Positions 16,553 to 32,403 of a stretch of DNA of 44,240 nucleotides are shown here, piece after piece. Position 1 is the first letter of the stretch. Every line of letters begins with the position of its first letter. Both the position numbers and the translations under genes were made by a program. The stretch comes from Parafrankia sp. EUN1f (GTDB lineage Bacteria > Actinomycetota > Actinomycetes > Frankiales > Frankiaceae): NCBI RefSeq assembly GCF_000177675.1, contig NZ_ADGX01000070.1:1-44240 (forward strand). Direction: 5' to 3'. The notes below the pieces were generated by a model. That model had not been told where the DNA came from. It saw nothing but the letters and a program-made list of their open reading frames with translations, and did no database searches.

Positions 16553-18298
16553 CTACGCTTCCTCGTACAGCACGCCGTCGCGCGTGAGGATCGTGGTCAC
16601 GGCCGCATGCTGGCTGTCGTGGACCACGAGCACCAGCAGCTGCTCTGCTCTGGAGGCACCGACGTAGAGCACCCGGCGGGTTTCGTGGCGTGCGCCGCAG
16701 TCCCAGTTCGACACGCCCTCTTGGATCCCGCCGTCCCGCGCCTTGGGGATCACGAGGGCGACGGCGGGTGATTGCAAGCCCTTGTAGCCGTGGACCGTGG
16801 AGTAGGCCAGGGCATCTGGGTTACCTGCTGCCGGGATGTGCTTCCACTTCTGGTCCTTCGTCACGCGCAGCTTCTTCGCGATGTCCGGGAACCGCTTGTC
16901 CCACCCGAGCTCCGCGATACCGCTCTTGATCGCGTCGCGGAACTCCTGCGGCGTCGCCTCGTAAGGCGAGACCCGCCAGGCGAGGCGCAAGGCCCCAGCG
17001 CGGAACTGCCGCTGGGTGATGCGGCACGCCTCGAAGAAGTCGTTGTCGTGGAGATCTGCAAAGCCACCTGCCGACTCCCGCAGGATGCTCTCGAACAGGG
17101 CCATCGCGCGGGCGCGATCCTGCGGCTTCCCGTTGCCGTCCCGGATGATGGCTGTCGCCTGGGCCAAACGCTCGATCGTGGTGGTGGCTGACCCGAGGGG
17201 CTTGCCCGCGCCGGCGTATCGGCGCGCGTCGCTGCCGCCGTGGGACAGCACCACGATCTGCTCTGCTGCAAAGCCCTCGCGCGCCGCGAGCGCTGTGATC
17301 TTTTTCGCCGCACCGGCCGGACCCGTGATCTTCAGGACGTAGACGGGCCGGGGCTCGTCCTTGTATGGCCCGCAGGGCGTATCGGCGCTGTCCCCGTAGC
17401 GCAGGCTGTCCACCACCTTGCAGATGGCGGGCGTGCTGCGATAGTTGCCGTCCAGGGGCTCGCCGGCCTCGACCAGTCCGGCCAAGGCGCCGGTCTCGCC
17501 GGGCGCAGTCTGCCGGAAGCCGTAGATCTCCTGGTCCACGTCACCGACCATCACCACGCTGATGCCCGACGCTTCCAGGAAACGGATCAGCGCCACGTCG
17601 CCGTCGTTGGAGTCCTGGAACTCGTCGATAATTACCTCGCCGAAGCGGTGGGCGAACCGCCGCTGAAGGCGCCCCGCCAGCACCGGGTCGACGAGGTACC
17701 CGGTCATGAGGTGGCGGGCGTACTCGCAGTCCACGAAGCCTGCACGGGTCAAGGACCGCCACTTATAACGTGCCTCGGCGGTGATGCCGTCCATGACGTC
17801 CTTGACGGCGGACATGGTCTGCGGGCGTAGTTCACCGGGTATCCGTCGCCGTACCAGCGTTGCCTCACCGTCTGCGGCGAACGAGAACCAGGCGAGGCGC
17901 AGACGCAGGCCAGCCTTCACCGTGGAGGTGTACACCCGCCCCGGCGTCGTCTCCCATGTGTCACGAAAGCTGGGCGGGTGACCGCGTCTGGCCGTGTAGA
18001 TGGGTCCGACGATGTAGCGGTTGATGAATCCGTCGATCGTGCCGACGAAGTTCGGGGCCCTGAGTAGCTGGGGGTAGTCCTGACAGCGCTCGTGGACGGC
18101 CGTGATCGCCGCATTGGTGAACGAGATGAGCGCTACGCCGAGCCGGTCGCCCTCGAGGCCGGGACGCCGGATGAACCGCTCCACGATGCTCTGGGTCTTG
18201 CCGGCCCCCGGGCAGGCCCTCACCATCCGGCTTCCGGGCTTCTCGATCAGTGCCAGCTGGTCCGGGCTATAGATCAGCCCGTTCGGAGGCGGCGCCAT
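16553..18298 (-). CDS. gajB: Gabija GajB, UvrD-like helicase
   Basis: A 581-residue superfamily 1 helicase-like protein. Visible motifs: Walker A CPGAGKT (29-35), a GTIDGFINRYI block, Walker B VIIDEFQDSND (about 222-232), motif III VGDVDQEIYGFRQ (251-263), motif IV GNYRSTP (284-290), motif V STVHGYKGLQSP (500-511) and motif VI RVLYVGASRAEQL (542-554). It follows gajA directly, and its ATG shares one base with the gajA stop (TGATG), which gives translational coupling. GajA-GajB in this order is the Gabija antiphage system. There GajA is an OLD-type nuclease, and GajB is thought to sense nucleic-acid ends or nucleotide state and activate it. Size agrees with the family (about 500-600). Confidence 0.9.
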   Translation of the reverse strand: MAPPPNGLIYSPDQLALIEKPGSRMVRACPGAGKTQSIVERFIRRPGLEGDRLGVALISFTNAAITAVHERCQDYPQLLRAPNFVGTIDGFINRYIVGPIYTARRGHPPSFRDTWETTPGRVYTSTVKAGLRLRLAWFSFAADGEATLVRRRIPGELRPQTMSAVKDVMDGITAEARYKWRSLTRAGFVDCEYARHLMTGYLVDPVLAGRLQRRFAHRFGEVIIDEFQDSNDGDVALIRFLEASGISVVMVGDVDQEIYGFRQTAPGETGALAGLVEAGEPLDGNYRSTPAICKVVDSLRYGDSADTPCGPYKDEPRPVYVLKITGPAGAAKKITALAAREGFAAEQIVVLSHGGSDARRYAGAGKPLGSATTTIERLAQATAIIRDGNGKPQDRARAMALFESILRESAGGFADLHDNDFFEACRITQRQFRAGALRLAWRVSPYEATPQEFRDAIKSGIAELGWDKRFPDIAKKLRVTKDQKWKHIPAAGNPDALAYSTVHGYKGLQSPAVALVIPKARDGGIQEGVSNWDCGARHETRRVLYVGASRAEQLLVLVVHDSQHAAVTTILTRDGVLYEEA

Positions 18299-20223
18299 CA
18301 GACGAACCTGATCGCGTCAGCCAGGTACTCCGGGCAGATGAACGGGTAACCGTCCTTGATGAGGCCGGCCAAATCGTGGGCGAACTCGCCCTTGCTAATC
18401 AGCTTCTCGTCACGGTACAGCGCGAGGTAGAGCGCCCGGGCCGGGTCGTCGCCTTCGATCTTTTCTTCCCACTTCGCCTCGGAGAGAGGATGCTGCTTCA
18501 GGTAGGCCTTGCGCAGCACCGGCTCGTTCCCCGCAGGCGTCAGGAGGTCCGCCTCCAAGGTGTGGGGCGCCTCGGCGACTCGCAGGATGCCGCTCGCGTC
18601 AAGCGACGCCGCGATGGCCTCGAGGTCCGCCTTGCGGTCGGCCGGCTTCGGTTCCTTGGCTCGCTCCGCGCCGTCCTTGCCCGCCTTCGTCCTTTTGGCT
18701 TCCCGCTCCTCGATGATCTCTGGAAGCACCGGATCACGGTCGGTGATCGCGGCGAGCCGGTCCACGAGGCGAATGCCGTCGCCGGCGGACCACAGCAGCA
18801 GCTTGACGTAGGGCGCGAAGTCCACGCTGCCGACGTTGATGATCGATGACGCCCGGTACCGACCCCAGGCCGCCTTAGCTGCTTGCTTCTCCTTCTCCCT
18901 CTGCTCCTCTGTCTCGTCACCACGGAGCTTTGGGACGAGGACGCAGTGCTTGGCAAGGGCCGGCAGCAACACCGCCTCGGCGATGCCTTCCACCAAGGTC
19001 ACGCGGGAGGTGAACAAAAGCTCCGACCGCGTGACGTCGAGGTACTGGTCGATCTTACGGCGCTCGTCAGGCTTTAGGCCTACGTCGGCCAAGGCCAAGG
19101 CCACCGTCGTAGCACGCATGGCCGGCTCGTTCGCCTTGACCGAGGCCACCTTGGCACCGTTCACCGGGGCCGGCACCGGCGCCAGCTCGCGTTTGGTCCG
19201 CAGGGCGACGATGTTGGTCGTGCCCACGGCGCTCGCGAGATTTGGCGAGTGGGTAGTGGCGATGACCTGGATACGACGGGCCGGTTCGGCGTCGTCTGGG
19301 CGGGTCGACTGCTCCGCCTTCTCCCGGAGGTAGTCGAGCAGCACCGCCTGAAGCTGGGGGTGCAGATGCGCCTCTGGCTCCTCGACAAGGAACAGCGTCA
19401 GCTCCGAGTCAGGAGCGTGCTCCAGCTCCAGGATCACCGAGGCCATGAAGACCAAGTTGGCATAGCCCAGCCCGGAGTCGGCAATGTCGGCCGGTTCCAG
19501 CCCGTGCTCCGCCATCTTCAGCCGCAGGCCGCGGGTAAGCCGCTCCAGCCGCACGAGCTCGAAGCCAAGGCCCACCCGTTGCGGGCGGACGGGCGTCGTG
19601 AGGTTGTCAACGTGCCGGTGGATGTCGTTCCGGGTGTTCGTGACGACCGGGTGGTCGGCGAGCTTCTCGAAGCCGTCCTTCGCCTTGGCGAGGAAGTCGT
19701 CACGATCATCATCACTGATGAGGTACTTGATGATGTGAGATAGGCGGCTGCCCCGGGCGGAGTCCAGCTCCCGCTGGGCGTCGCGCAGCGGCGCCAGGTA
19801 GACATGATTGACGCGAGCCCGTAGCTCCGGCTCCGAATCGACTGCCTTCGCCCGGCCAACCAGCGGCACCCGCCGTTCGCGCTGCGAAAGGTCCGCTTCT
19901 ACCCGGTAACGGCTGGTGTAGTAGAGGCAGCCATCCTCCGCGTCAACGAGCGCCATGTACTGACCCTCTTGGTAGTGGCTAAGCCCCGCGAACCGCGCGG
20001 TCAGCTCGACGTCGTCGCGACTACCGAAGGACGGGTCATCGTCGGCCTCAAAGTAGCGCGTCGGGCGGCCACTCAAGGGCGGAGTGGAGAGACGCAAGGC
20101 ATCGATGATGTTGGACTTGCCGGAGTTGTTCTCACCGACGATGAGCGTCAGCCCTCGCTGGAACGTGACCGTCGTGTCCCGACACGAGCGGAAGTTCTTC
20201 AGCGTGAACTCGGCCAGGTACAT
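18298..20223 (-). CDS. gajA: Gabija GajA, OLD-family ATPase with TOPRIM nuclease domain
   Basis: 641 residues. The N-terminal ATPase has LAEFTLKNFRSC, Walker A GENNSGKSN (30-38), a signature-like ADSGLGYANLVF (248-259), Walker B LFLVEEPEAHLHPQL (277-291) and the switch histidine in ATTHSPNLAS (322-331). The TOPRIM domain has E412 and E416 in VEGIAEAVLLPAL and a D495-x-D497 pair (ITDRDP). The end KGEFAHDLAG ... CPEYLADAI is typical of class 2 OLD proteins. GajA is the sequence-specific nicking or cutting nuclease of Gabija. I place the start at ATG 20223, where family homology begins. A GTG at 20292 with GGGGA seven bases upstream and a promoter-like region beyond is an alternative that adds 23 residues. 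Confidence 0.9.
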   Translation of the reverse strand: MYLAEFTLKNFRSCRDTTVTFQRGLTLIVGENNSGKSNIIDALRLSTPPLSGRPTRYFEADDDPSFGSRDDVELTARFAGLSHYQEGQYMALVDAEDGCLYYTSRYRVEADLSQRERRVPLVGRAKAVDSEPELRARVNHVYLAPLRDAQRELDSARGSRLSHIIKYLISDDDRDDFLAKAKDGFEKLADHPVVTNTRNDIHRHVDNLTTPVRPQRVGLGFELVRLERLTRGLRLKMAEHGLEPADIADSGLGYANLVFMASVILELEHAPDSELTLFLVEEPEAHLHPQLQAVLLDYLREKAEQSTRPDDAEPARRIQVIATTHSPNLASAVGTTNIVALRTKRELAPVPAPVNGAKVASVKANEPAMRATTVALALADVGLKPDERRKIDQYLDVTRSELLFTSRVTLVEGIAEAVLLPALAKHCVLVPKLRGDETEEQREKEKQAAKAAWGRYRASSIINVGSVDFAPYVKLLLWSAGDGIRLVDRLAAITDRDPVLPEIIEEREAKRTKAGKDGAERAKEPKPADRKADLEAIAASLDASGILRVAEAPHTLEADLLTPAGNEPVLRKAYLKQHPLSEAKWEEKIEGDDPARALYLALYRDEKLISKGEFAHDLAGLIKDGYPFICPEYLADAIRFV

Positions 20224-20292
20224 CGACTGCCGGACCGACGGCCGCGCCCCGCCATCGTGGGGCAGCGCAAGCCCAGGAGTAGATACAGCCAC

Positions 20293-20350
20293 CAGATGTC
20301 CCCGTTTACTTGCCCCGTATTGATCTTGAACCACCCGACAGTCAAGATCG
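20293..20350 (-). promoter_or_regulatory. gajA upstream region: inverted repeat and possible promoter
   Basis: GATCTTGA (20322-20329) and TCAAGATC (20342-20349) form a perfect 8-bp inverted repeat with a 12-base spacer. On the minus strand a TTGACT (20345-20340) is followed after 17 bases by CAATAC, a fair -35 and a weak -10. A GGGGA at 20304-20300 then precedes the GTG at 20292. The dyad overlaps the promoter and so could bind a regulator. Confidence 0.4.
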
Positions 20351-20923
20351 AAATTTGTCGCTCCACGGCGGATACGGGCGAGCGACAACGGGGACTTACT
20401 GTAGCGGAGCCATACCAGGTCGACTGCCGCCGGGCGTACTCGGCGATCTACCCGAACGGCCATGTCAGCATCACGACGCGCGGTTCAAGGCCGCTCAAGG
20501 CCCGTTGTCTACACCGGTGTGAGCGCGAGAGGTGCGTTCCCTCAGGCGAGCAGGCCGCAGCGCACCACGTGGACCGTCTTGGTGGGGCCGCCACCGTGCT
20601 TGACCTTCTGGACTTCCTTCTGGAGTTCCTTCAGCGCCGAAGCCATCACGCCCACCACCATCGCGACACCGCCGGAGCCGGGGCCATGCTCACAGACGAT
20701 GTAGCGGACACGGAGGGACCGGGTGGGCCGGCCGGGACATGGTGCTGACGCAGGCCTACCTCGCCGAGGTCCATGCTGCCGCCAGCGATCTGGAGGTCTC
20801 CCGTTTGTACGCCGAGCAGGCACGGGGAGTCTGTCGGGGCGAATGCAGTCACCGCCGGCCGAGGCCGTACTGACTGGACTCTCAGTCCTGTGAGGGACCG
20901 TTGCTGGATAGACCTGATGATCA
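20351..20923. other. Stretch between Gabija and the sce7726-like gene
   Basis: I see no confident gene. On the minus strand, 20542 up to about 20660 reads MASALKELQKEVQKVKHGGG and ends in a stop; it could be the tail of a small helical protein. On the plus strand 20739-20873 encodes a 44-residue frame (AYLAEVHAAASDLEVSRLYA) with no ribosome site. Both may be coding relics. Confidence 0.3.
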
Positions 20924-21535
20924 GTGCCAGAGTGGGCCGCCGCAGGTGACCACACGCAAGCGAAAGCGGGGGACGTGCTCCGAGATGCCGAGGTTCGACG
21001 TGCTCTCGTCGACGAGCTCGCCATAGGCCTCGACGCCGACACCCTCGTGCTGGACGAGCTTGACCTATGTGGCCTTACCCGGGTGGATGTCGCGGTCGTC
21101 AACGGTCACCTGTCCGGCTTCGAGATCAAGGGCTCGACTGACTCGCTGCGCCGCTTGCCCAGCCAAGTGACTGTCTACTCACAGGTACTCGACTTCGCCG
21201 AGGTGGTCGTCACCGAGAACCACTGCCGACGTGCCCTGGACATCCTCCCCGCCTGGTGGGGAGTTCGGGTCGCTTCGGAAACCGGGCGGGTCCATCTTGA
21301 CGGCTTGCGGCCACCTCAGATGAACGATTCCGTTGATCCAGGCGCCCTCGTGCAGTTGCTCTGGCGAGATGAGGCTCTCGCCGAGCTCGTCACACGCGGC
21401 TTGGACCATGGAGTCCGGTCCAAGCCGCGATGGATCATCTGGGAGCGTCTGGCTGCCGAGGTCCCCCTCGACGAGCTGAGGGCCGCAGTGCGCGCACGAC
21501 TCAAGACGCGAACAGGGTGGCGATCTGCTCGCTGA
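20924..21535 (+). CDS. sce7726-like protein, PD-(D/E)xK nuclease-like
   Basis: A 203-residue protein resembling the sce7726 family: VLRDAEVRRALVDEL at the N-terminus, then TRVDVAVVNGHLSGFEIKGSTD, where D and E-x-K of a PD-(D/E)xK nuclease core are visible (VDVAVVNG ... FEIKG). AEVVVTENHCRRALDILPAW with WWGVRVAS follows. The start is uncertain: GTG at 20924 gives a 17-residue leader, and GTG at 20975 begins at the family start, but neither has a good ribosome site. Members of this family are often encoded next to beta-family (sce7725-like) proteins, as here, though here the two genes converge and overlap by 35 bases. The function is unknown; a nuclease effector is inferred from the motif and the defence context. 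Confidence 0.7.
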   Translation: MPEWAAAGDHTQAKAGDVLRDAEVRRALVDELAIGLDADTLVLDELDLCGLTRVDVAVVNGHLSGFEIKGSTDSLRRLPSQVTVYSQVLDFAEVVVTENHCRRALDILPAWWGVRVASETGRVHLDGLRPPQMNDSVDPGALVQLLWRDEALAELVTRGLDHGVRSKPRWIIWERLAAEVPLDELRAAVRARLKTRTGWRSAR

Positions 21536-22589
21536 CCAACGTTAGGTGGTGCAGCGTCCCGTGCTGGCGCCACGTCGTCGGAGACCCACCTGTCGCGTCG
21601 TCGTCTGCGACCGCAGCGATCCATGCGTCGGCTCGGCAGTGCTGTCGGCCAGCGAAGTAGGTGGAGGCACTTAGCTGTGCGGCGACAGGATTCATGGCCG
21701 CCGCGCCCATTCCTCGCGGCTTCCCCGCATAGAGGCCGCCTTTGGCAATGATCCACTGGTCGCCATTCGTGTAGCGCAACGTTGCGCTGATCCTTCCCCC
21801 AGGAGGAAAGGCCCCCATGTCCGCAGCCGGGTTGGCGATGGCGTAGTCCCCGAAGGACGGCTTCAGGTCGGGCGGCAGTCGCGCCAGGAGCTGGCGGTAG
21901 GCGACCCACTCCGTTCGTTCGATCGAGGAGAGACCCTCCGCCCTTCCCCCCATGGTCGCGGGGAAGGCAGTACCCGCTACGGTGACGCTCCGCCAGCTCC
22001 GCGCAAACGGAAGATTGAACAGCTCGGCTTCGAGGATCTCCGCTGTATCCGTGGGATGCCCTTGGATCCGAGTGCCCAGGTCCAGGATCAGGTCGGTTTC
22101 GCTAACCGGGACCTTCAACACCCCCAGAAACTCCTTGAGCCCGGCGCCTTTATCGTCCGAGGGCCACTGCTCTGGCGGAAGCCGGAGACAGACGCCGAGC
22201 TCGTGTCGTCGGTGCAGCACTGTCACCGCGGAGTCGTACAGCCCTGGCCGACCCGGTGAGGTCACGGGAACCGGGCTGACTCCAGATCGGACTAGGCCAT
22301 CCACGAAGACCTTAAGGGGGTGGGCACCGTCGGGCCCCTGTTCGTCCTGGAGATACCGCAGGTCGATGAACGCGGGACCGGTCCAGCGACTGCTGATGGC
22401 CTCGGCAAGGTCCTCCAGACGTGTACCGAGAGTCTTCTCCGTCTGCTTTTGGGCCGTGTCCTGCGATGCCGGCGGTGCCACAAGTAGGGGAAGCATGCCA
22501 GGTCGCGCCGAGGTGGACAGATTTCTGAGCGCGTCCAGCTCACCTCGCCGTGCCAGGAGGATCGGGACATACCGCAAGCTACTGGTCAC
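21501..22589 (-). CDS. Beta-family (sce7725-like) protein
   Basis: A 362-residue protein of the beta protein family (as I recall it, PF14350; related to sce7725). Features are SSLRYVPILLARRGELDAL at the start, strand-helix repeats through FIDLRYLQDEQGPDG and DLILDLGTRI, and the family FGDYAIANPAADMGAF block followed by GGRISATLRYTNGDQWIIAK. The GTG at 22589 has AGGAGG eight bases upstream, a strong start. Phage and bacterial members are uncharacterised; the alternating strand-helix pattern suggests a TIM-barrel-like fold (inference). It overlaps the sce7726-like gene tail to tail by 35 bases, so transcription of one may affect the other. Confidence 0.75.
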   Translation of the reverse strand: MTSSLRYVPILLARRGELDALRNLSTSARPGMLPLLVAPPASQDTAQKQTEKTLGTRLEDLAEAISSRWTGPAFIDLRYLQDEQGPDGAHPLKVFVDGLVRSGVSPVPVTSPGRPGLYDSAVTVLHRRHELGVCLRLPPEQWPSDDKGAGLKEFLGVLKVPVSETDLILDLGTRIQGHPTDTAEILEAELFNLPFARSWRSVTVAGTAFPATMGGRAEGLSSIERTEWVAYRQLLARLPPDLKPSFGDYAIANPAADMGAFPPGGRISATLRYTNGDQWIIAKGGLYAGKPRGMGAAAMNPVAAQLSASTYFAGRQHCRADAWIAAVADDDATGGSPTTWRQHGTLHHLTLVSEQIATLFAS

Positions 22590-23079: not shown

Positions 23080-26000
23080 ATGACTTACGTGAGTACCGAC
23101 GGGGAGGCGGCGGTGGATCCGCCGGCGTGGGACGTCTTGGTTTCGTACGCCGAGAGCGACGTCCAATGGGCGGAGTGGGTCGCCTGGCAGGTCGAGGCAA
23201 TAGGATATCGAGTTCTTCTTCAGGCTTGGGACATGGTTCCGGGGACTCACTGGACAGGGCTCCTGGCTGACGGCCTGGCCCGTTCCGGACGTACAGTCGC
23301 GATTATTTCGTCCGCCTATGTCGAGTCGGCGCAGGCGAGAGCTGAGTGGCTGGAAGCGTGGCGGAGCGACCGGGAAGGCCTGCAGCGCAGGCTCGTTCCG
23401 GTGCGTGTCGAGGATTGCCGACCAGCCGGAGTACTCGGTCAGGTCGTCTCGATCGACATTTTCGGCGTTGATGCTGACACGGCGTCAATGCGTCTAGCCG
23501 ACGGTCTGCACGCCACAGCGTCCGGACGGACGAAGCCGGACGCCGCACCAATGTTCCCGGGTGATGCTGCGGGTGCGTGGGCGTATCCGGACTCTCGCAC
23601 GATCGCACCGCCATTCGCTGCGGTAGAACCTCCCGTGCGGCCTCTACCCGCGGTCCTGCCCTTCGCTCAGTTAGGCAGCGAGGAGTTCGAGCGCCTCACA
23701 GCGGCGGTCGCGAAGCACGTCGACGGGTTCGCGACCGTGTCCCGTTACGGCACGCGGGGTCAGCGGCAACTGGGTATCGACGTGCTGGCCAGGAACGACG
23801 ACGAGTCCGCTGTGTGCTACCAGGCGAAGTGCTACGCCAGATACATGCCGGCTGACCTGAGAAAGGCCGTCGACGAGTTCGCAACGCGCCGCCTGTCGCC
23901 ATGGCGAAAGATCATCGTCATGGTGGCGTCTACGACCAACAGTGTCCAGATGCTAACCGAGCTGGAACGCCTGTCCACGCGGCACACCGACTTCGCCATC
24001 GAGCTGCGAGGCGAGGAACAGCTCTCCGACGAGCTTCGCCGCCACCCCAGCCTGGTTGCAAGATTCTTCGGAGAAACCTGGAGGAAGGAATTCTGCCTTC
24101 TGCCAGAAGGCGAGTCCGCGACCAGGACGCCGCCGGCCATAGATCAGTCCTTCGCGCCACCGGCCGTTGGTAGCAGTGCGACCGCCCGCCCTTCGCTGGA
24201 GGCCGCCGTCCTCGGCGAGCTCGCTGCCGGCTTGATCTCGCCTGTGGTCGCGTTGACAGGCATGTCGGGCGCCGGTAAGAGCACCATCGCGCGCAAGGCT
24301 GTCGCGTCGCAGGAGGTGCGAGACCGTTTCGCGGACGGCCTGATTTGGATCACGGCAGGACCCGGAGCGGACCCGACCGCGTGCCAGTCCTGGGTGTTGG
24401 AGGCCTGCGGGGACCGGTTTCCCGTGCGGACCGTTGATGAGGGTGTCCGCCGCCTTCGCAAAGTTCTCGGCGGCCGTCGCGTCCTCATAGTGGCGGACGA
24501 CGTGTGGACAGCCGAGCAGGTCCGCGCGTTGGACGCCCAGGTGCCGGGGTCAGGTCTGCTGGTCACCAGCCGGAACGCCGAGGTCGTTTCGCCTGGAGAT
24601 GGTTTGGTATGTGTGGGGCCACTCGAACCCGACGAAGCCCGCAACCTGCTCGCCCGCTATGCGGGCGTCGACGCGGACGCGCTACCTGATGAGGCAGACG
24701 ACGTCGTCACGACCTGCGGCCGCCTGGCCTTGGCCCTGGCGATCGCCGGAGGGATGGTCGCCGATGGCCACCAATGGTCTTACGTGCTGGCTCGCCTCAG
24801 AAACGCCGACCTGAGGAGACTGCGCCACCGCTTCCGCGACTACCCCGACCATCCCACCCTGTTCGCCGCGCTGGACACGAGCCTGGCCGCCCTGCCGCCA
24901 GCCGACCGGGTCCGCTTCCTGGAGCTCTCGGTATTCGAAGGCCAGACGCCGGTCCCCCACGAGGCTGTGCGTCGGCTGTGGCGACTGTCCGGAAGTCTCG
25001 ACGGGTTGGATGCCGCTGATCTCTGTGTCACGTTGGCGCAGAGGTCGCTGATCCAGAGCGATCCCTCGACCGCGACGATTCAGGTACATGATCTCCTGTT
25101 TGTCTATGCGCGGCACGAACTAGGCGCGAGGCGTCTCTGTGAATTGCACCACCGACTGGCCCAGTCTTTTCTGGCCGGATGGGGAGGACTGAGCGAGGGC
25201 CTACCGAAACTGGCCGGGTCTCCCACACTCGACGCTGAGAACGCGTACGGACTTGCACACGTCTGCCACCATCTCCTCCGCGCCGACGACCCGGAGGGAC
25301 TGCACCGGCTGCTGAGCAGTGAACGACCGGGAGTCGGTGCGGATTCGGCGAACCTGTGGTACCACGTTCACGAACGACTTGACGTATCGGCCTGGTATCT
25401 GGCCGACCTCCGGCTGGCCTGGCAGCAGGCCGAACGAGAGGTCGATACCGCCACCGAGCGGCGTCAGCGAGCGGTGTCCGTCATCCGGGAGTTTCGGTAT
25501 GCGTTGATGACGTCGTCCGTAGTCGGCATCGCCGGGCAGATTCCCGTGCCGCTGCTGGTGCTTCTTCTGCGGGAAGGCGTGTGGACGCCCACCGAAGTCC
25601 TCGCTTACGCCTCGTCCATACCTAACTCGGTCGTCCGTTCCCAGGCGCTGGCTGCGTTGTCGCCAAACCTTCCAGGCGATCTTGTCGCGGAGGTCATTGA
25701 GGGAGCCCGGCAGATGGGGGACCCGCAGCTCAGAGTGGACCTTCTCGTGCAACTTGCCCCGCACGCGCCCGCAGCGTTGCTCGAAAGCCTATTCGACGCG
25801 GTGTGGAGCACACCCGCTTGGTGGGCCCAAACGTCAGGCGCGACCCGGCTAATCAGATTCCTGGCACCGGACCGGCGGATACCGGTACTCGATTCCCTGC
25901 TGGATATGGTCCGCGACCGCGATGACCCTTTGGAACGCGTGTGGGGACTGGATGAACTAGCGCCACACCTTACGCCTCCCCTGCGCCGACGGGTCGCGGC

Positions 26001-28182
26001 CGAGGCGCTGTGCGCCACCAGGGACATCGACGACCTTCCGATCAGAGTCTCCGCGTTTGCGCTTGTGCTGGCGCACCTGCCCCCGAAACGCCGTGCGGTC
26101 GTGCTCGTCGAGGCGCTGACCTGCGTCGACGGCCTATCCGACTCCTACGAACGGATCGATGCGGTCGCAGAACTGGCGCCGCACCTAGCCGCGGCCGGAG
26201 ATGTGCCCCGCCTGCGTGATGCTCTGGCGGAGACTCGCGCGACCCGGCTGACAGCGTTCGGACTTCTGCGCCAGATGATTCCCCACCTTCCACCGGAACT
26301 CCACGACGACGCGATCGCGGCCGCGACGGCTATGGACGATCCTGATGCGCTGTCTACTGCGCTGGTAGATCTAGCACCCCACCTGTCGGCCCGGCTGCTG
26401 GCATCCGCGCTACAGGCCGCTGGAACGATCCAGTCCACGGACTCGCAATCCAACGCGCTCTGCGGATTGGCGAAGTACCTGCCGCCCGGCCTGCTGGGTG
26501 AGGCGCTACGCATTACCAAGAAGATCGACAACCTGGCGGACAGATGCAAATCGCTGATCAGTATCGCCGGTCAGCTTCCCCCGCACGAGCGCAGCGTGAT
26601 CGTGGACGAGGTCCTCGCATCGGTCCCGACGTTGGATTCGATCAGCGTGCGCGCTGACGTCCTGGCCAGGCTAGTTTCCAGCGATGTCGACGCACCGCTC
26701 GACCAAGTGCTCACGCTCACATACAGCATCGATGACCCCCAGGAGCGCGTCAGGATTCTCACCCACCTTGCCGGAGCCGCCTCGTCGCCCGTCCGCGACA
26801 CAGCGCTGGCAGAGGCGCTGGCTGCGGGTCGTGAGATCCCAGAGGACATGTACCGGGCCAAGGCGCTGACCGACCTCATCCCCCTGCTACCGACCGGCTA
26901 CCGGCGCCAGGTGCTGCTCGAGGCTGTGTCCGCCGCTCGCAGGCTCAACGACAAAGCCTCGGTTGGCCAGTTTCAGATTTCCTTGGCGTCTTGCCTACCA
27001 CCCAACCTAATCGGCCCGGCGCTCATGAGGACGGTAAACGAGATCTACGTGGGAGCCGAACGTGCCGACGCGCTCGCCACCATCGTGCGTAGGCTTCCCG
27101 CCGACTTGCTCAGCAGCGCCCTGCAGGAGGCGAGGCGGATTCCTTACGGCATGGACGTGGTGCTCGAAGCGTTGGCGCCGCGCCTGCCTCCGGACCTGCT
27201 CGGCGAAGCCCTCGCGACGGCGTGGAAGGCGCCCACCGCGCACACACGGATAAGCCAGCTGGTCGTCCTGGCGCCATATACCGACGGCGCAGCGCGACAG
27301 CGCCTGCTCGACGAGGTGCTGGCACACGACCAAACGAAGCACCACCGGGCGGGCGTAGTCGCCCGGCTCGCGCCGCTGCTGCCAGACAAGACGCGCCAGG
27401 CGCTCCTGAAAGAGTCCGAAGAACTAGACCCGGAGGACCGGGCGGTCGCGCTCGGCGGCCTTATCCCCACACTGTCGGATGCTGCGCGGACGGCCGCGAC
27501 GGAGAATCTGCTGGGCGCGCTCACGACGATCCCGGACCCGATTCGTCAGGCGAGATCCGTCGCCATGTACATCTCGCTCCTACCCGCCGAACAGCACCCG
27601 AGTCTACTCGCAGCGACCATCGAACGAATCATTCACGAATCGGGCCGTTACGGCGACCAAGCCGATGGCCTTCTAGCCCTCGCGCCGCACCTACCGCCTG
27701 ACCTAGCACGGAAGGCGCTGAACGCGGCCCGCCGCCTAGACGTCCCATCCAGGCAGGCAACAGCCCTCGCCGGTCTCACCAGAATCCTTGTTCCGGCTGA
27801 CAAGGCCTCGGTTCTGCAGGAGGCGATGACGGCCACCGACCACGTAGAACGGGAGAAATACCGGGTTCAAGCGCTCGAGGATATTGCACGCAACACCGTC
27901 GCCGAGACTGTGCCAGATGTGATTGCCAAAGCTCAGACGCTGCGATACCCCGACGACCAGGCGACCGTATTTGCAGAGCTCGCCGCGACGCGCGATACGC
28001 TGGAGGGCCCGGCGTGGCCGGGCTCTTGGCGGCTTGCACTACGGACTGCCGCCGCAGCCGGTCGCGGTTCCGTTCTGCACACGCTCCCGAGGGCAATCCT
28101 GTCGACGCACCTATCCGACGACACGGATTTTGTTCGAGACGTCTGTTCCCTCGTGCGCGACGTCGCACGGTGCTGGCCTTGA
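23080..28182 (+). CDS. TIR / Mrr-like nuclease / NB-ARC / helical-repeat defence protein (1700 aa)
   Basis: Domains in order. TIR, residues about 17-140: WDVLVSYAESDVQWAEWVAW and the AIISSAYVES-AEW block, with E89 as candidate NADase glutamate. Mrr-like restriction nuclease, about 193-335: GSEEFERLTAAVAKHV, then G232-I-D234 and Q248-A-K250, a D-QxK core. NB-ARC: P-loop GMSGAGKST (394-402), Walker B VLIVADDVW (468-476), GSGLLVTSRNAEVV (490-503), GLPL-like CGRLALALAIAGG (546-558) and an MHD-like VHD (669-671). From about 800 to 1640 many 30-50-residue helical repeats follow the pattern ALxxLAPHLPPxLLxEAL. This fits an NLR/Avs-like sensor with an autoinhibited switch. The ATG at 23080 lacks a ribosome site; GTG 23113 (codon 12) has GGGGAGG five bases upstream and may be the true start. 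No partner gene is seen on its strand. Confidence 0.88.
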   Translation: MTYVSTDGEAAVDPPAWDVLVSYAESDVQWAEWVAWQVEAIGYRVLLQAWDMVPGTHWTGLLADGLARSGRTVAIISSAYVESAQARAEWLEAWRSDREGLQRRLVPVRVEDCRPAGVLGQVVSIDIFGVDADTASMRLADGLHATASGRTKPDAAPMFPGDAAGAWAYPDSRTIAPPFAAVEPPVRPLPAVLPFAQLGSEEFERLTAAVAKHVDGFATVSRYGTRGQRQLGIDVLARNDDESAVCYQAKCYARYMPADLRKAVDEFATRRLSPWRKIIVMVASTTNSVQMLTELERLSTRHTDFAIELRGEEQLSDELRRHPSLVARFFGETWRKEFCLLPEGESATRTPPAIDQSFAPPAVGSSATARPSLEAAVLGELAAGLISPVVALTGMSGAGKSTIARKAVASQEVRDRFADGLIWITAGPGADPTACQSWVLEACGDRFPVRTVDEGVRRLRKVLGGRRVLIVADDVWTAEQVRALDAQVPGSGLLVTSRNAEVVSPGDGLVCVGPLEPDEARNLLARYAGVDADALPDEADDVVTTCGRLALALAIAGGMVADGHQWSYVLARLRNADLRRLRHRFRDYPDHPTLFAALDTSLAALPPADRVRFLELSVFEGQTPVPHEAVRRLWRLSGSLDGLDAADLCVTLAQRSLIQSDPSTATIQVHDLLFVYARHELGARRLCELHHRLAQSFLAGWGGLSEGLPKLAGSPTLDAENAYGLAHVCHHLLRADDPEGLHRLLSSERPGVGADSANLWYHVHERLDVSAWYLADLRLAWQQAEREVDTATERRQRAVSVIREFRYALMTSSVVGIAGQIPVPLLVLLLREGVWTPTEVLAYASSIPNSVVRSQALAALSPNLPGDLVAEVIEGARQMGDPQLRVDLLVQLAPHAPAALLESLFDAVWSTPAWWAQTSGATRLIRFLAPDRRIPVLDSLLDMVRDRDDPLERVWGLDELAPHLTPPLRRRVAAEALCATRDIDDLPIRVSAFALVLAHLPPKRRAVVLVEALTCVDGLSDSYERIDAVAELAPHLAAAGDVPRLRDALAETRATRLTAFGLLRQMIPHLPPELHDDAIAAATAMDDPDALSTALVDLAPHLSARLLASALQAAGTIQSTDSQSNALCGLAKYLPPGLLGEALRITKKIDNLADRCKSLISIAGQLPPHERSVIVDEVLASVPTLDSISVRADVLARLVSSDVDAPLDQVLTLTYSIDDPQERVRILTHLAGAASSPVRDTALAEALAAGREIPEDMYRAKALTDLIPLLPTGYRRQVLLEAVSAARRLNDKASVGQFQISLASCLPPNLIGPALMRTVNEIYVGAERADALATIVRRLPADLLSSALQEARRIPYGMDVVLEALAPRLPPDLLGEALATAWKAPTAHTRISQLVVLAPYTDGAARQRLLDEVLAHDQTKHHRAGVVARLAPLLPDKTRQALLKESEELDPEDRAVALGGLIPTLSDAARTAATENLLGALTTIPDPIRQARSVAMYISLLPAEQHPSLLAATIERIIHESGRYGDQADGLLALAPHLPPDLARKALNAARRLDVPSRQATALAGLTRILVPADKASVLQEAMTATDHVEREKYRVQALEDIARNTVAETVPDVIAKAQTLRYPDDQATVFAELAATRDTLEGPAWPGSWRLALRTAAAAGRGSVLHTLPRAILSTHLSDDTDFVRDVCSLVRDVARCWP

Positions 28183-28442: not shown

Positions 28443-29040
28443 CTAGGGACTGTCTGGCCGATCATGTCGCGAGCCAGATCGTGATCGAGGCGATGACGAC
28501 CTCGGACCGGTAGTAGTGCCCGCGTTTGGCGTAGCGGGTCGCCAGCCCGCGGTACTGCTTGAGCCGATTGAAGCAGCGTTCCACCACGTTGCGCTGCTTG
28601 TAGAGCTGCGCGTCGAACGCGGGCGGGCGACCGCCCGCGGACCCGCGACGGCGCCGGTTCACCTGGTGATCCTTCTTCTCCGGGATCGTGTGGGAGATGC
28701 CCCGTGCCCGCAGCGACTCGCGGATCTTCTTGCTGGCGTAGGCCTTGTCAGCGAGGAGATGGTCGGGGCGTGTACGGGGCCGTCCTCGCCCCAGGCGCGG
28801 AACCCGGATACCAGCCATGACCTGGTCGAAATGGGTGCCATCGCTGGCCTGCCCGGGGGTCAGCACGATCGACAGCGGTCGGCCCCGCCCGTCGCACGCC
28901 AGATGAATCTTGCTGGTCAGGCCGCCCCGGGACCGGCCGATCGCCTCTTTCGCCGCTGACGGTCGAGCCCGGTTCACCGCGGTCGTGCACCGGGTCCACA
29001 TACTCCGGTCGGGTCCTGGCCGGCCCAGGACCCGACCCGA
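28443..29040 (-). mobile_element. IS5-family transposase remnant, N-terminal half missing
   Basis: The minus strand encodes the C-terminal two thirds of an IS5-family (IS427-like) transposase: AIGRSRGGLTSKIHLACDG, a PLSIVLTPGQASDG stretch, LLADKAYASKKIRESLR with the second catalytic aspartate (in ADKAY), and NVVERCFNRLKQYRGLATRY with the final catalytic Glu; the stop is at 28462. The first DDE aspartate normally lies before GRSRGG and is not found. The right-hand end is near 28443 (GGGACTGTCTGGCC); I found no matching inverted repeat near 29040. It is a dead copy. Confidence 0.75.
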
Positions 29041-29055
29041 TCGGGTGCTGGCGGG

Positions 29056-29422
29056 GGTGAACACCACCGAGGCGGTCGTCGCGGCCAGCATGCTGAACGA
29101 GCTCTTCCACCCAGACGCGCAGACCGCGGTCCAATGGCTCAAGATACTACGCGACACGCTGCCCGACCGCGTCCTAGTCGTCGTGGACTACTACGGCGTG
29201 CTGGGGCACTCCCCCGAGCCTCCCCCGCGACGGGCGCTGCACGACTGGATCCAGGCAATCTCCTCTCAGGGGATCCCGCCGCCCGACCTCGATGCCTGGG
29301 AATCTGTCTACCACGAAGCCGGCTGCGAACTTCTTCACGCCGTCGAGGACTCCCAGGCCGGAGTCTTCATACACTTCATCCGGCTCACGGCAGCCGATCG
29401 CGCCTCGACCGGCCTTCAATAA
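29056..29422 (+). pseudogene. C-terminal fragment, methyltransferase-like
   Basis: The open part (AVVAASMLNELFHPDAQTAV, LKILRDTLPDRVLVVVDYYG, then DAWESVYHEAGCELLHAVED and GVFIHFIRL) reads like the end of a class I SAM-dependent methyltransferase: a VVVDYYG strand, then a long helix and a final beta-hairpin. There is no start; the sequence fuses to the IS remnant around 29040. The family call is tentative. Confidence 0.4.
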
Positions 29423-30386: not shown

Positions 30387-31208
30387 ATGAACGCCGAAGC
30401 GGCAGCAGCCGCGCCTTCGACGCCGACCTCATCCCGGGGTGCAGGATCATCCCCCGCCGCCGTGAAGATCGTCACTGCGGTGATCGTGACCGTCGTCGGG
30501 CTGACGTTCTTGTTCAGCTTCGGCAACATCCTCGCGCTCGGGCTTCGGCTCGGCGTCTCCCTCTGGGTCGCTCCCCTCGTCGCGCCCGCCGTCGACCTCT
30601 CCGTCGTCGGGCTCCTCATCGGCATCCGCCACCTCGCCCTTCACGGCGGACCCGCCGACCTACAACGATCCGCACGGCGCCTCCTCATCTTCGCCAGCAT
30701 CGTCGCTCTCACGCTGAACATCTCCGAGCCACTGATCACCGGCCACTACGGCAAAGCCGCCTTCGACGCAGTCGGCCCACTCCTGCTCATAGGATGGGCG
30801 GAAGTCGGACCGCGACTCATTCAAGCAATGCAGACGACAGAACCATTTCCGGTCGATACGCTTCCACCCGCCGCGCAGACAGCACCCCTCGCTGATATAC
30901 CTGTCCAGTCGACATCACAAGCACAGCCTCCGACACAACGTAAATCGGTCGAGCCACGGCCTTCCAGCCACCATGAGCGCGCATCAGACCAAGACCTCAT
31001 ACACCGGGCCTGCGCCGAAGACACCCTGCACTGGAAGCAACATCACCGACCGATCTCAGCCGAAACCCTCCGCAAGCGCCTCCACGTCGGAGCACCCACC
31101 GCACGACACCTCGTCACGCAGCTAAGGACCGCAACCCACGCTCGACTCGACACAAAAATCGACGGCAGCTTTTCCGCCAGTCAAGACGATGGGCTATCGG
31201 AACCGTAA
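30387..31208 (+). CDS. DUF2637 membrane protein with C-terminal HTH-like domain (second intact copy)
   Basis: A 273-residue paralogue of the protein at 15301-16254, starting at an equivalent ATG (MNAEAAAAAPSTP). Four membrane helices are again visible, for instance GLTFLFSFGNILALGLRLGV and PAVDLSVVGLLIGIRHLAL. The linker is shorter and different, and the C-terminal segment RACAEDTLHWKQHHRPISAE followed by TLRKRLHVGAPTARHLVTQL is conserved. The coding strand of the linker is less G+C-rich than the surroundings. The stop at 31208 lies inside the longest open frame of the ISAs1 transposase. It sits directly right of att-like module 2, as its sister sits right of module 1. Confidence 0.8.
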   Translation: MNAEAAAAAPSTPTSSRGAGSSPAAVKIVTAVIVTVVGLTFLFSFGNILALGLRLGVSLWVAPLVAPAVDLSVVGLLIGIRHLALHGGPADLQRSARRLLIFASIVALTLNISEPLITGHYGKAAFDAVGPLLLIGWAEVGPRLIQAMQTTEPFPVDTLPPAAQTAPLADIPVQSTSQAQPPTQRKSVEPRPSSHHERASDQDLIHRACAEDTLHWKQHHRPISAETLRKRLHVGAPTARHLVTQLRTATHARLDTKIDGSFSASQDDGLSEP

Positions 31209-32403
31209 CGTCTGCGTTCCGGCACGCCGGCCGACAGGACTGGAAAACTTATCCAAGGATCTCCGGCCGGTGTGCACGGTACCCGACCGTCCCGGCGGCC
31301 GAGGCGCGGTGTCGGGTCTGGTGGAGGTGTTCGACCGGGTCCCGGACCCGCGGAAACCCCGAGGCCGGCGGCACAGCCTGGCGGTGGTGCTGACCCTGGC
31401 GACGTGCGCGGTCCTCGCCGGTGCACGGTCGTTCACCGCGATCGGTGAGTGGGCCGCCGATGCCGGCCTCGCGGTCGCTGACCTGCTCGGTATCGTCCGG
31501 GTGCCTGACACCTCGACGTTTCGCCGGGTGTTCACCGCGCTCGACGCCGACGCGCTGGACACGGTGCTGGGAGCGTGGGCCACCGCGGTGACCAGCCCGG
31601 CGGCGGGGATGCAGCGGCGGGTCGCGGTCGACGGCAAGACGGTGCGTGGCTCCCGCGCCGGTGACAGTCCGGGTCGGCACCTGCTCGCAGCCCTCGACCA
31701 TGACACCGGTGTCGTGCTCGGTCAGGTCGCGGTGGACGCGAAGACGAACGAGATCCCCACGCTGCCCGTCCTGCTCGCTGGTCTCGACCTGACCGGTGTG
31801 ATCGTCACGGCGGACGCGTTGCACACCCAGACCGAGACCGCGCGCTGGCTGGTCGGCCGCGGGGCGCACTACGTCCTGACGGTGAAGGCGAACCAGCCCA
31901 GCCAGTACGCCCAGCTCGCCGCCCTGCCCTGGGGCCAGGTGCGAACCACCACCGCGCGGACCGTCGAGCGTGGCCACGGCCGCTGTGAGCGACGGACCGT
32001 GAAAGCGACCGAGGTCCGTGCCGGGCTGTTGTTCCCGCATGCCGTGCAGGCGGTCCGGATCACCCGCCGACGCCAACCCCTCACCGGCGGGCCCGCCGAG
32101 ACCGAGGTCGCCTACCTGATCACCAGCGTGGCGACCCATCAGGCCAGCCCATCCCAGCTCGCCGCGTTCGCCCGGGAGCACTGGCATGTGGAGAACCGGC
32201 TGCGCTGGGTCCGCGATGTGACTTTCGGTGAGGATCTCAGCCAGATCCGGACCGGTCACGCACCCCAGGTCATGGCCAGTCTGCGCAACCTCGCGATCGC
32301 GATCCTGCGCCTGACCGGCGTCACGAACATCGCCGCGGGCACCCGTCATCACGCCCGCCGCCCCGAACGCCCACTTCAGACGATCATGAAGCTTGCTTGC
32401 TAA
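31189..32403 (+). mobile_element. ISAs1-family transposase
   Basis: A DDE transposase of up to 404 residues, apparently complete. Hallmarks are EVFDRVPDPRKPRGRRHSLA, VAVDGKTVRGSRAGD (first Asp), GVIVTADALHTQTETARWLV (second Asp) and HWHVENRLRWVRDVTFGEDL (catalytic Glu region) with an AIAILRLTGVTNIAAGTRHH end. The true start is uncertain: the frame opens at ATG 31189, inside the DUF2637 gene, and GTG 31309 begins near the first conserved block (VSGLVEVFDRV). Downstream, a PAS-GAF-GGDEF gene resumes mid-domain at about 32437, so the element sits in or beside that gene. I did not identify its terminal inverted repeats. Confidence 0.88.

What the first reader, a model, noticed from the sequence alone, without database searches (positions are those of the whole stretch)
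23080..28182. One NB-ARC protein with two predicted effectors, TIR and Mrr-like nuclease
TIR (17-140) and a D-QxK Mrr-like nuclease (193-335) both precede one NB-ARC switch with an MHD-like VHD motif, then about 850 residues of degenerate helical repeats. Known bacterial NLR- and Avs-type proteins mostly carry one effector. Two could give NAD+ depletion and DNA cleavage from a single trigger, or one domain may be a scaffold. Key residues (E89; D234, Q248, K250; P-loop) look intact. The combination is not one I can name as a described system.
Basis: partly seen in the sequence, partly recalled or inferred. Interest (0 to 1): 0.88.

Follow-up and report, generated by a model that had tools for sequence, protein, structure and literature searches.

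The report
Bacterial immune receptor with two weapons
A soil bacterium related to Frankia carries one large immune-receptor-like protein bearing two different predicted killing enzymes (one that destroys NAD+, one that cuts DNA) ahead of a single molecular switch, a combination found in no relative examined here; it would let one alarm trigger two kinds of damage.

Summary
Window 23080-28182 (+) is one 1700-residue open frame: TIR domain, PD-(D/E)xK (Mrr-like) nuclease domain, NB-ARC switch, long helical-repeat tail. TIR and NB-ARC are unambiguous by Pfam. The nuclease is weak by sequence alone but is supported by 18 aligned relatives, by active-site residues kept almost throughout, and by a moderate-confidence fold model whose PDB neighbours include the N-terminal domain of Avs4, FokI and MspJI.

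Each piece is an exchangeable module. Of 28 other NB-ARC/repeat proteins of the same family in Frankiaceae, 20 carry an EAD1 adaptor, 3 a TIR, 1 a kinase, 1 another head, and 3 nothing recognisable (one is incomplete). The nuclease heads other receptors or repeat proteins alone. Both together were seen only here.

Best reading: an NLR-type abortive-infection receptor, in a cluster with Gabija, whose oligomerisation fires NAD+ cleavage and DNA cleavage together. That both heads are active is inferred. Two-effector immune proteins have precedents: pAgo-linked proteins with REase plus TIR, and a CHAT+TIR protein. So this is a new variant of a known kind, from one genome, untested.

The parts
23080..28182 (+). 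TIR - Mrr-like nuclease - NB-ARC - helical-repeat protein, 1700 aa, stop included
   Evidence: C-terminus compared with 29 related frames
23131..23499 (+). TIR domain, residues about 18-140, putative catalytic Glu E89
   Evidence: Pfam TIR_2 99.7 bits; E89 position is Glu in 35 of 47 aligned TIR domains, 4 gapped there
23500..23649 (+). Pro/Ala-rich linker, residues 141-190
   Evidence: sequence; G+C at codon position 2 raised
23650..24099 (+). PD-(D/E)xK (Mrr-like) nuclease domain, residues about 191-340; E204, D234, Q248, K250
   Evidence: alignment A2, Pfam on family members, fold model and structural matches
24238..25299 (+). NB-ARC switch, residues about 387-740; P-loop from 394, Walker B at about 473-474, VHD 669-671
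   Evidence: Pfam NB-ARC 78.4 bits; phmmer to AfsR, Apaf-1 and plant NLR structures; motifs
25300..28179 (+). helical-repeat (HEAT-like) tail, putative sensor, residues about 741-1700
   Evidence: model all-helical, low confidence; Foldseek matches to karyopherins and PP2A scaffold; self-comparison peaks at lags 36 and 32
16553..20463 (-). nearby Gabija pair GajB (16553-18298) and GajA (18298-20463); context, not part of the protein
   Evidence: PADLOC GajA 703 bits, GajB 442 bits
20924..22589 (.). neighbouring candidate defence genes: 'cll'-like (20924-21535 +) and PD-Lambda-2_C / Beta_protein (21501-22589 -); context
   Evidence: PADLOC, Pfam
28462..29157 (-). DDE transposase downstream of the gene; context
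   Evidence: Pfam DDE_Tnp_1

Best explanation
This is an NLR/STAND-type immune receptor of a Frankiaceae bacterium, most likely an abortive-infection (anti-phage or anti-element) protein. The helical-repeat tail senses a trigger, the NB-ARC module exchanges nucleotide and oligomerises, and two enzymes carried in cis at the N-terminus are then brought together: a TIR that cleaves NAD+ and a PD-(D/E)xK nuclease that cuts DNA. It arose by module shuffling: a nuclease head used elsewhere on NACHT and repeat proteins sits between a lineage-typical TIR and a Frankiaceae NB-ARC/repeat chassis. Shown: domain content, intact motifs, nuclease fold (moderate-confidence model), exchangeable heads in the family, defence-gene neighbours. 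Inferred: enzymatic activity of each head, the trigger, oligomerisation, simultaneous firing, and defence function.
For: Pfam TIR_2 and NB-ARC well above cut-off. In alignment A2 (19 rows, window included) the Asp of GQxQxG[IVL]D is in 19 of 19, the Gln of QxK in 18 of 19, and the Lys position is Lys in 16 and Arg in 3. In a second set of 37 rows, 35 span the motif and all 35 keep D and Qx[KR] (27 K, 8 R); the other two are partial matches. Model topology fits, and among VIA-align rows are Avs4 residues 2-174 Z 9.4, EndoMS 9.2, FokI 9.2, MspJI 8.9, AspBHI 8.8. The nuclease part of one relative (L085) matches the N-terminus of the PADLOC Avs2 profile, E 2e-5. The same chassis carries EAD1, TIR, kinase or other heads in its 28 relatives, as expected for a receptor with exchangeable outputs. 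Gabija and PD-Lambda-2_C/cll-like genes lie close by.
Against: A single example: no other protein with both heads was found, so selection on the pair cannot be shown. The window's nuclease domain falls just below both Pfam cut-offs. The fold model rests on three sequences, pLDDT 70.6, and the other four models scored 43-58. In Foldseek only one match reaches E 0.001 and it is an RNA polymerase subunit; the first nuclease, EcoT38I, has E 0.006 and Avs4 0.05. VIA-align also ranks two polymerase subunits first (Z 10.7, 10.2), and its own note calls a best Z of 7-8 common for unmatched models, so Z 9 is support rather than proof. No activity, trigger or phage data exist. NB-ARC is also used in the transcription regulator AfsR, so defence is not the only possible role.
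Confidence: 0.5

Rival explanations
1. The nuclease is the only killer; the TIR works as an oligomerisation scaffold or homotypic docking site, or has a modest signalling role. TIR modules in these genomes act as general connectors.
For: Frankiaceae genomes hold many TIRs of this type (32 of 35 genomes have matches to residues 1-345 at E 1e-10, up to 28 in one). They sit beside kinase, NB-ARC, nSTAND1 and iHD-CE domains and, by eye, an EAD1-like stretch (L046), which suits a connector. The nuclease is well conserved in its own family.
Against: E89 and the surrounding conserved TIR positions are intact, which a pure scaffold need not keep.
Confidence: 0.22
2. The TIR is the only killer; the nuclease-fold domain binds DNA or holds the receptor inactive, with little or no cleavage.
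For: The window's nuclease is divergent (26-41% identity to the other rows of A2) and sits internally, whereas in 13 of 13 annotated plasmid genes with the domain inside a larger protein it lies within 213 bases of the annotated start.
Against: D234, Q248 and K250 are all kept, including the Lys that 8 of 35 relatives have as Arg.
Confidence: 0.13
3. A recent or accidental fusion of two heads, seen once, with no special dual function; one head will decay.
For: Only one instance in the genomes searched (with the TIR checks); heads are swapped in this family.
Against: Both motif sets, the long frame and the C-terminus are intact.
Confidence: 0.1
4. Not immunity: an AfsR-like regulator or developmental programmed-death protein.
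For: The NB-ARC's best PDB-sequence match is AfsR; the two NCBIfam hits are AfsR and FxSxx_TPR, far below cut-off.
Against: No DNA-binding regulatory domain among the Pfam hits; two predicted toxic-enzyme heads; defence-gene neighbours.
Confidence: 0.05

Closest known systems
Frankiaceae NB-ARC + repeat family found here (for example L139, L141, L045)
   Same: NB-ARC and first repeats 34-44% identical over 283-647 residues in the 28 relatives (blastp); WWP-type C-terminus in 16 of 29 frames
   Different: The relatives carry EAD1 (20), TIR (3, one partial), kinase (1), other (1) or no recognisable head (3, one of them a frame that begins inside the NB-ARC); in none did the NB-ARC frame carry a nuclease match or two effectors
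Avs / AVAST (Avs2, Avs4)
   Same: N-terminal Mrr-like nuclease head on a STAND receptor; the model matches the Avs4 nuclease part and a relative matches the Avs2 N-terminus
   Different: NB-ARC rather than the Avs NTPase, extra TIR, HEAT-like tail; no Avs profile among the four PADLOC hits of the protein. Details of Avs proteins are recalled.
NACHT proteins headed by the same nuclease (Streptomyces L040, Pantoea L082, Enterobacter L085, same-genus L044)
   Same: Same nuclease family, 30-32% identical to the window's in A2, heading a STAND-type receptor
   Different: NACHT, not NB-ARC; no TIR match
pAgo-associated proteins with REase and TIR
   Same: A restriction-fold nuclease and a TIR on one immune polypeptide (PMC2743648 and PMC10810196, passages read; PADLOC family Aga_REase-TIR-PNTD1-PNTD2 matches the window's TIR)
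   Different: Argonaute-linked; no NB-ARC mentioned in the passages
CHAT + TIR DGR target (Thiohalocapsa DGR 2)
   Same: Two predicted effectors in one conflict-system protein (PMC10907252, passage read)
   Different: Caspase-like CHAT + TIR in a diversified target protein; no nuclease or NB-ARC mentioned in the passage

Membership tests
NB-ARC STAND receptor (NLR-type) | NB-ARC domain with P-loop, Walker B and MHD-like motif | tested here: met
   Pfam 78.4 bits vs 23.5; GMSGAGKS, IVADDVW, VHD
NB-ARC STAND receptor (NLR-type) | N-terminal effector or adaptor and C-terminal repeat superstructure | tested here: met
   TIR and nuclease ahead; all-helical tail by a low-confidence model
NB-ARC STAND receptor (NLR-type) | Trigger-dependent nucleotide exchange and oligomerisation | not testable with these tools
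   Needs biochemistry
TIR NADase | TIR fold domain | tested here: met
   TIR_2 99.7 bits
TIR NADase | Catalytic Glu | tested here: met
   E89; Glu in 35 of 47 aligned TIRs, 4 gapped there. That this Glu is the catalytic one is recalled knowledge.
TIR NADase | NAD+ hydrolysis or cyclisation | not testable with these tools
   Needs assay
PD-(D/E)xK nuclease, Mrr_cat-like | Restriction-endonuclease fold | tested here: met
   Model topology; of the 12 listed chains with Z 8 or more, 9 are nucleases and 3 RNA polymerase subunits. Moderate-confidence model.
PD-(D/E)xK nuclease, Mrr_cat-like | D ... (D/E/Q)xK active-site motif | tested here: met
   D234, Q248-x-K250
PD-(D/E)xK nuclease, Mrr_cat-like | Score above Pfam Mrr_cat / Mrr_cat_2 cut-offs | tested here: inconclusive
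   Window fragment 20.1 vs 21 and 21.2 vs 22; relatives L041, L042 and L069 reach Mrr_cat's cut-off
Avs / AVAST | Match to an Avs profile over the protein | tested here: not met
   No Avs model among the PADLOC hits of the protein at E 0.01
Avs / AVAST | Recognition of phage terminase or portal | not testable with these tools
   Needs experiment
pAgo-associated REase-TIR-APAZ | APAZ (PNTD) region | tested here: not met
   The four PADLOC pAgo-family matches cover only the TIR (residues 19-128); no APAZ or Piwi family among the Pfam hits

The most novel reading that the evidence does not exclude
A single NLR switch fires two chemically different toxic enzymes in cis, NAD+ cleavage and DNA cleavage, so that one phage countermeasure (NAD+ rebuilding, a TIR inhibitor or a nuclease inhibitor) cannot disarm the receptor: a built-in two-output immune receptor on an NB-ARC chassis.
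Probability: 0.42. Interest if true: 0.75.

Novelty: new variant of a known kind. Interest (0 to 1): 0.55.

Why it matters
Bacterial NLR-like receptors are usually pictured with one output. A natural receptor with two intact output enzymes on one switch would let one ask, with point mutants in a single gene, whether outputs act together, in order, or as insurance against phage inhibitors. It also shows how heads are exchanged in this family: the same chassis carries adaptor, kinase, TIR or TIR plus nuclease. Since REase and TIR are also found together on Argonaute-linked proteins, the pairing may have been assembled more than once, on unrelated sensors.

Tried and rejected
Tried without success: nuclease homologues in viral contigs with the window domain alone and with A1 gave none; A4 gave two (L127, L128). 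Phage records gave no match to residues 1-345. The profile A2 against PDB sequences gave mainly coiled-coil proteins (best E 1e-4, tetherin), judged composition-driven and dropped. A single-protein search of the nuclease region against PDB sequences found nothing at E 5. Aligning TIR and nuclease fragments together misplaced the nuclease rows in A7 and probably in A6, so neither was used for folding. The sensor model was folded without an alignment and is weak; its matches say no more than 'helical solenoid'.

Considered and rejected: spurious fusion of two frames (one continuous frame); TIR and nuclease being one known domain (each occurs alone in relatives); further two-headed relatives suggested by long frames ahead of the nuclease in L174, L178, L186 and L187 (no TIR match; by eye the upstream parts look like non-coding extensions; longer stretches taken were not analysed). 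A TIR alignment reaching residue 251 in G028 was opened as L119: no nuclease match there.

Limits: genome searches had Actinomycetota centres only. The 393, 396, 247, 301 and 394 genomes overlap by an amount I did not work out, and in these searches only the best 9 to 15 first-look candidates of a genome were scored, so members may have been missed. One search did not list all its matches; the claim for the order rests (2 of 35 genomes with a nuclease match: the window's, and G017, a NACHT protein without a TIR match ahead of the nuclease). In one search up to 36 candidates a genome were scored. Of 25 plasmid records with a nuclease match I opened 16. In one search, 30 of 52 records were listed, none covering both heads. 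Loci given by the genome search hold about 1.5 kb each side of the match. TIRs were sought with the window's TIR or a profile of its close kin, so a very different TIR could be missed. The 37 rows are not all independent: L168 is the protein of L070, L169 probably that of L087, and L184 and L202 are two like copies in one genome. The kinase head of L139, the other head of L165 and the EAD1-like part of L046 were read by eye. EAD1 heads were called by similarity to the EAD1 of L045, which Pfam confirms. In one search the nuclease profile also gave one 13-bit match in a different frame of L140, taken as chance.

Full report
What is there. The stretch 23080-28182 (+) is a single open frame of 1700 codons starting with ATG. 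Pfam finds TIR_2 at residues 19-134 (99.7 bits, cut-off 28) and NB-ARC at 386-579 (78.4 bits, cut-off 23.5); the region between gives only a sub-threshold Mrr_cat_2 match, 16.1 bits against a cut-off of 22. Codon-position 3 G+C is 0.62-0.81 in all eight segments, and the Pro-rich linkers 141-190 and 341-385 stand out only at position 2. The C-terminus CWP* resembles the WWP* end of 16 of 29 related frames. The gene looks complete and is not a chance fusion of frames.

The nuclease domain is real. Residues 190-345 scanned alone score 21.2 (Mrr_cat_2, cut-off 22) and 20.1 (Mrr_cat, cut-off 21), a near miss, but 13 of 19 members of the aligned family match Mrr_cat and 10 match Mrr_cat_2 at E 0.1 or better. 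tblastn found 25 plasmid records with the domain at E 0.01. In alignment A2 (19 rows, window included) the Asp of GQxQxG[IVL]D is invariant, the Gln of QxK is kept in 18 of 19, and the Lys position is Lys in 16 and Arg in 3. A second set gave 37 rows, not all independent; 35 span the motif and all 35 keep D and Qx[KR], with 27 Lys and 8 Arg. A model of residues 186-352, built with two viral-contig relatives, has helix, three strands, helix, strand, helix, strand (mean pLDDT 70.6, pTM 0.68; the four other models scored 43-58). Foldseek against PDB ranks two RNA polymerase subunits first (E 5e-4, 1.5e-3), then EcoT38I (6e-3) and EndoMS (0.02), with Avs4 at rank 7 (0.05). The second look by VIA-align also puts two polymerase subunits first (Z 10.7, 10.2), then Avs4 residues 2-174 Z 9.4, EndoMS 9.2, FokI 9.2, MspJI 8.9, EcoT38I 8.8 and AspBHI 8.8; of the 12 listed chains with Z of 8 or more, 9 are nucleases and 3 polymerase subunits. 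The tool notes that a best Z of 7-8 is common without a clear match, so this is support, not proof. The polymerase-subunit domain is recalled to share a nuclease-like fold. The nuclease part of one relative (L085) also matches the N-terminus of the PADLOC Avs2 profile, E 2e-5. Taking sequence family, motif and model together, I take the fold as shown and the activity as inferred.

Where the pieces come from. The window's genome (G000, unnamed, 9.35 Mb) belongs to the family of Frankia: the three best named TIR matches are Frankia, and a family member, G005, has a contig of 7,590,853 bases, the length of Frankia sp. QA3's NZ_CM001489.1. TIRs of this type are very numerous there: 32 of 35 genomes of the order have matches to residues 1-345 at E 1e-10, up to 28 in one. 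They join other domains: protein kinase-TIR (L077, L080), TIR-NB-ARC-TPR (L075, L079), TIR with a weak caspase match and iHD-CE (L121), TIR-nSTAND1-WD40 (L122). The NB-ARC plus repeat chassis is also a local family: 13 of 35 genomes have a match at E 1e-35, 29 matches in all with the window's own. I took the other 28 and looked at their N-termini: EAD1 in 20, TIR in 3 (one partial), a protein kinase in 1 (L139), another head in 1 (L165), nothing recognisable in 3 (one of them, L163, begins inside the NB-ARC). None of these NB-ARC frames had a nuclease match; one 13-bit match lay in a different frame of L140. On a tree of 30 NB-ARC domains the window's closest row is the kinase-headed L139 (46% identity over 381 columns), though its place is unsupported. 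All heads together need 9 changes against a least possible of 5 (shuffled mean 9.7; as low in 54 of 200), so head type is hardly tied to descent overall; EAD1 on its own is somewhat clustered (6 changes, shuffled mean 8.5, as low in 25 of 500).

The nuclease head likewise lives without a TIR. It heads NACHT proteins in Streptomyces (L040), Pantoea (L082), Enterobacter (L085) and a species of the window's own genus (L044), and repeat proteins without a recognised NTPase in Rhodococcus (L041, L042). In Deinococcus it is a separate gene just upstream of a NACHT gene (L092). In 13 of 13 annotated plasmid genes that hold the domain inside a larger protein, it lies within 213 bases of the annotated start, leaving no room for a TIR. 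Testing the open frames of the fetched loci for both domains found them in one frame only in the window's own protein. The searches behind this covered 35 genomes of the order, 393 of the class, 396 of the phylum, 247 of another class and 301 and 394 of two families; these sets overlap, only the best candidates per genome were scored, and phyla outside Actinomycetota were sampled only through plasmid, phage and viral collections and one pattern scan of genome contigs.

Neighbourhood. On the left lie Gabija GajB and GajA (16553-20463, -), a 'cll'-like gene (20924-21535, +) and a PD-Lambda-2_C/Beta_protein gene (21501-22589, -); on the right a DDE transposase (28462-29157, -), then a DUF2637-like protein below cut-off, a second transposase, a GGDEF protein and transport and glycosidase genes. 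The gene lies between two opposite-strand genes in a small defence cluster next to a transposase. This supports, but does not prove, a defence role.

How it most likely works. By analogy with NLR and Avs receptors (established knowledge), the helical tail would recognise a trigger, the NB-ARC would exchange nucleotide and oligomerise, and the N-terminal domains would be brought together. Both head types are, by recalled knowledge of Avs, SPARTA and plant TIR receptors, activated by being brought together: TIRs form composite active sites and PD-(D/E)xK domains pair to cut both strands. One oligomer could therefore activate both. The steps from trigger to double output are inferred; only the parts list and the intact motifs are shown. 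The main rivals are that TIR is only a scaffold (0.22), that the nuclease is only a regulator (0.13), or that the pair is an accidental fusion seen once (0.1).

Comparison with what is known. Two-output immune proteins are not new as an idea. [quoted passage not shown] PMC2743648 (passages read) notes an extra N-terminal PD-(D/E)XK nuclease on several TIR-containing pAgo partners, and PADLOC has a family named REase-TIR. PMC7159879 (passages read) says effector combinations are frequently observed in related conflict systems and lists Mrr-like REases among the effectors. PMC10907252 (passages read) describes a target with both CHAT and TIR. PMC12799240 (passages read) reports nuclease-protease pairs acquired repeatedly by unrelated defence systems. 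In ten literature searches (two returned nothing; the library is open-licence only) I saw no description of TIR + Mrr + NB-ARC in the listings or the passages read. The paper on bacterial NLR-related proteins (PMC10294775) is not held.

Verdict. I rate it a new variant of a known kind, interest 0.55; the boldest reading not excluded, two active enzymes fired by one NB-ARC switch, has probability 0.42 and interest 0.75 if true.

Noticed in passing
16553-20463 (-): Gabija pair. The GajA frame has about 80 residues ahead of the profile start, so its true start is probably internal.
   Followed up: no
20924-22589: A 'cll'-like gene (+) and a PD-Lambda-2_C/Beta_protein gene (-) overlap tail to tail; both are candidate defence genes.
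   Followed up: partly
28462-29157 (-) and 31189-32403 (+): Two DDE transposases right of the receptor gene.
   Followed up: no
L045, L139-L165 (C-termini): The NB-ARC/repeat family ends in a conserved WWP (16 of 29 frames; CWP in the window), an unexplained C-terminal signature.
   Followed up: partly
L092 2896-6228: Deinococcus plasmid: the same nuclease domain as a stand-alone gene directly upstream of a NACHT gene, a split version of the fused head.
   Followed up: no
L041, L042, L089, L090, L091, L069: A set of about 1050-1110-residue actinobacterial proteins with the nuclease head; no NTPase family was found in the three scanned with Pfam (L041, L042, L069). Function unclear.
   Followed up: no
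L043 6001-6495: The Embleya copy of the nuclease gene is interrupted by an in-frame stop inside the domain.
   Followed up: no
L165 23-5587 (-): Relative whose NB-ARC is preceded by helical repeats that look like RNA polymerase alpha C-terminal domains (read by eye).
   Followed up: no
L077 3168-5579, L080 4277-6844: Protein kinase-TIR fusions in the window's own genome.
   Followed up: no
L121 750-7247: TIR, weak caspase match (just under cut-off), iHD-CE and repeated wHTH-HSP90_Na-assoc units in one 2166-residue protein; possibly another two-effector protein.
   Followed up: no
L046 3287-8606: Tandem genes in the window's genome: a frame of 449 residues with a TIR near its end, and a TIR-NB-ARC protein with WD-like repeats (by eye) downstream.
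   Followed up: no
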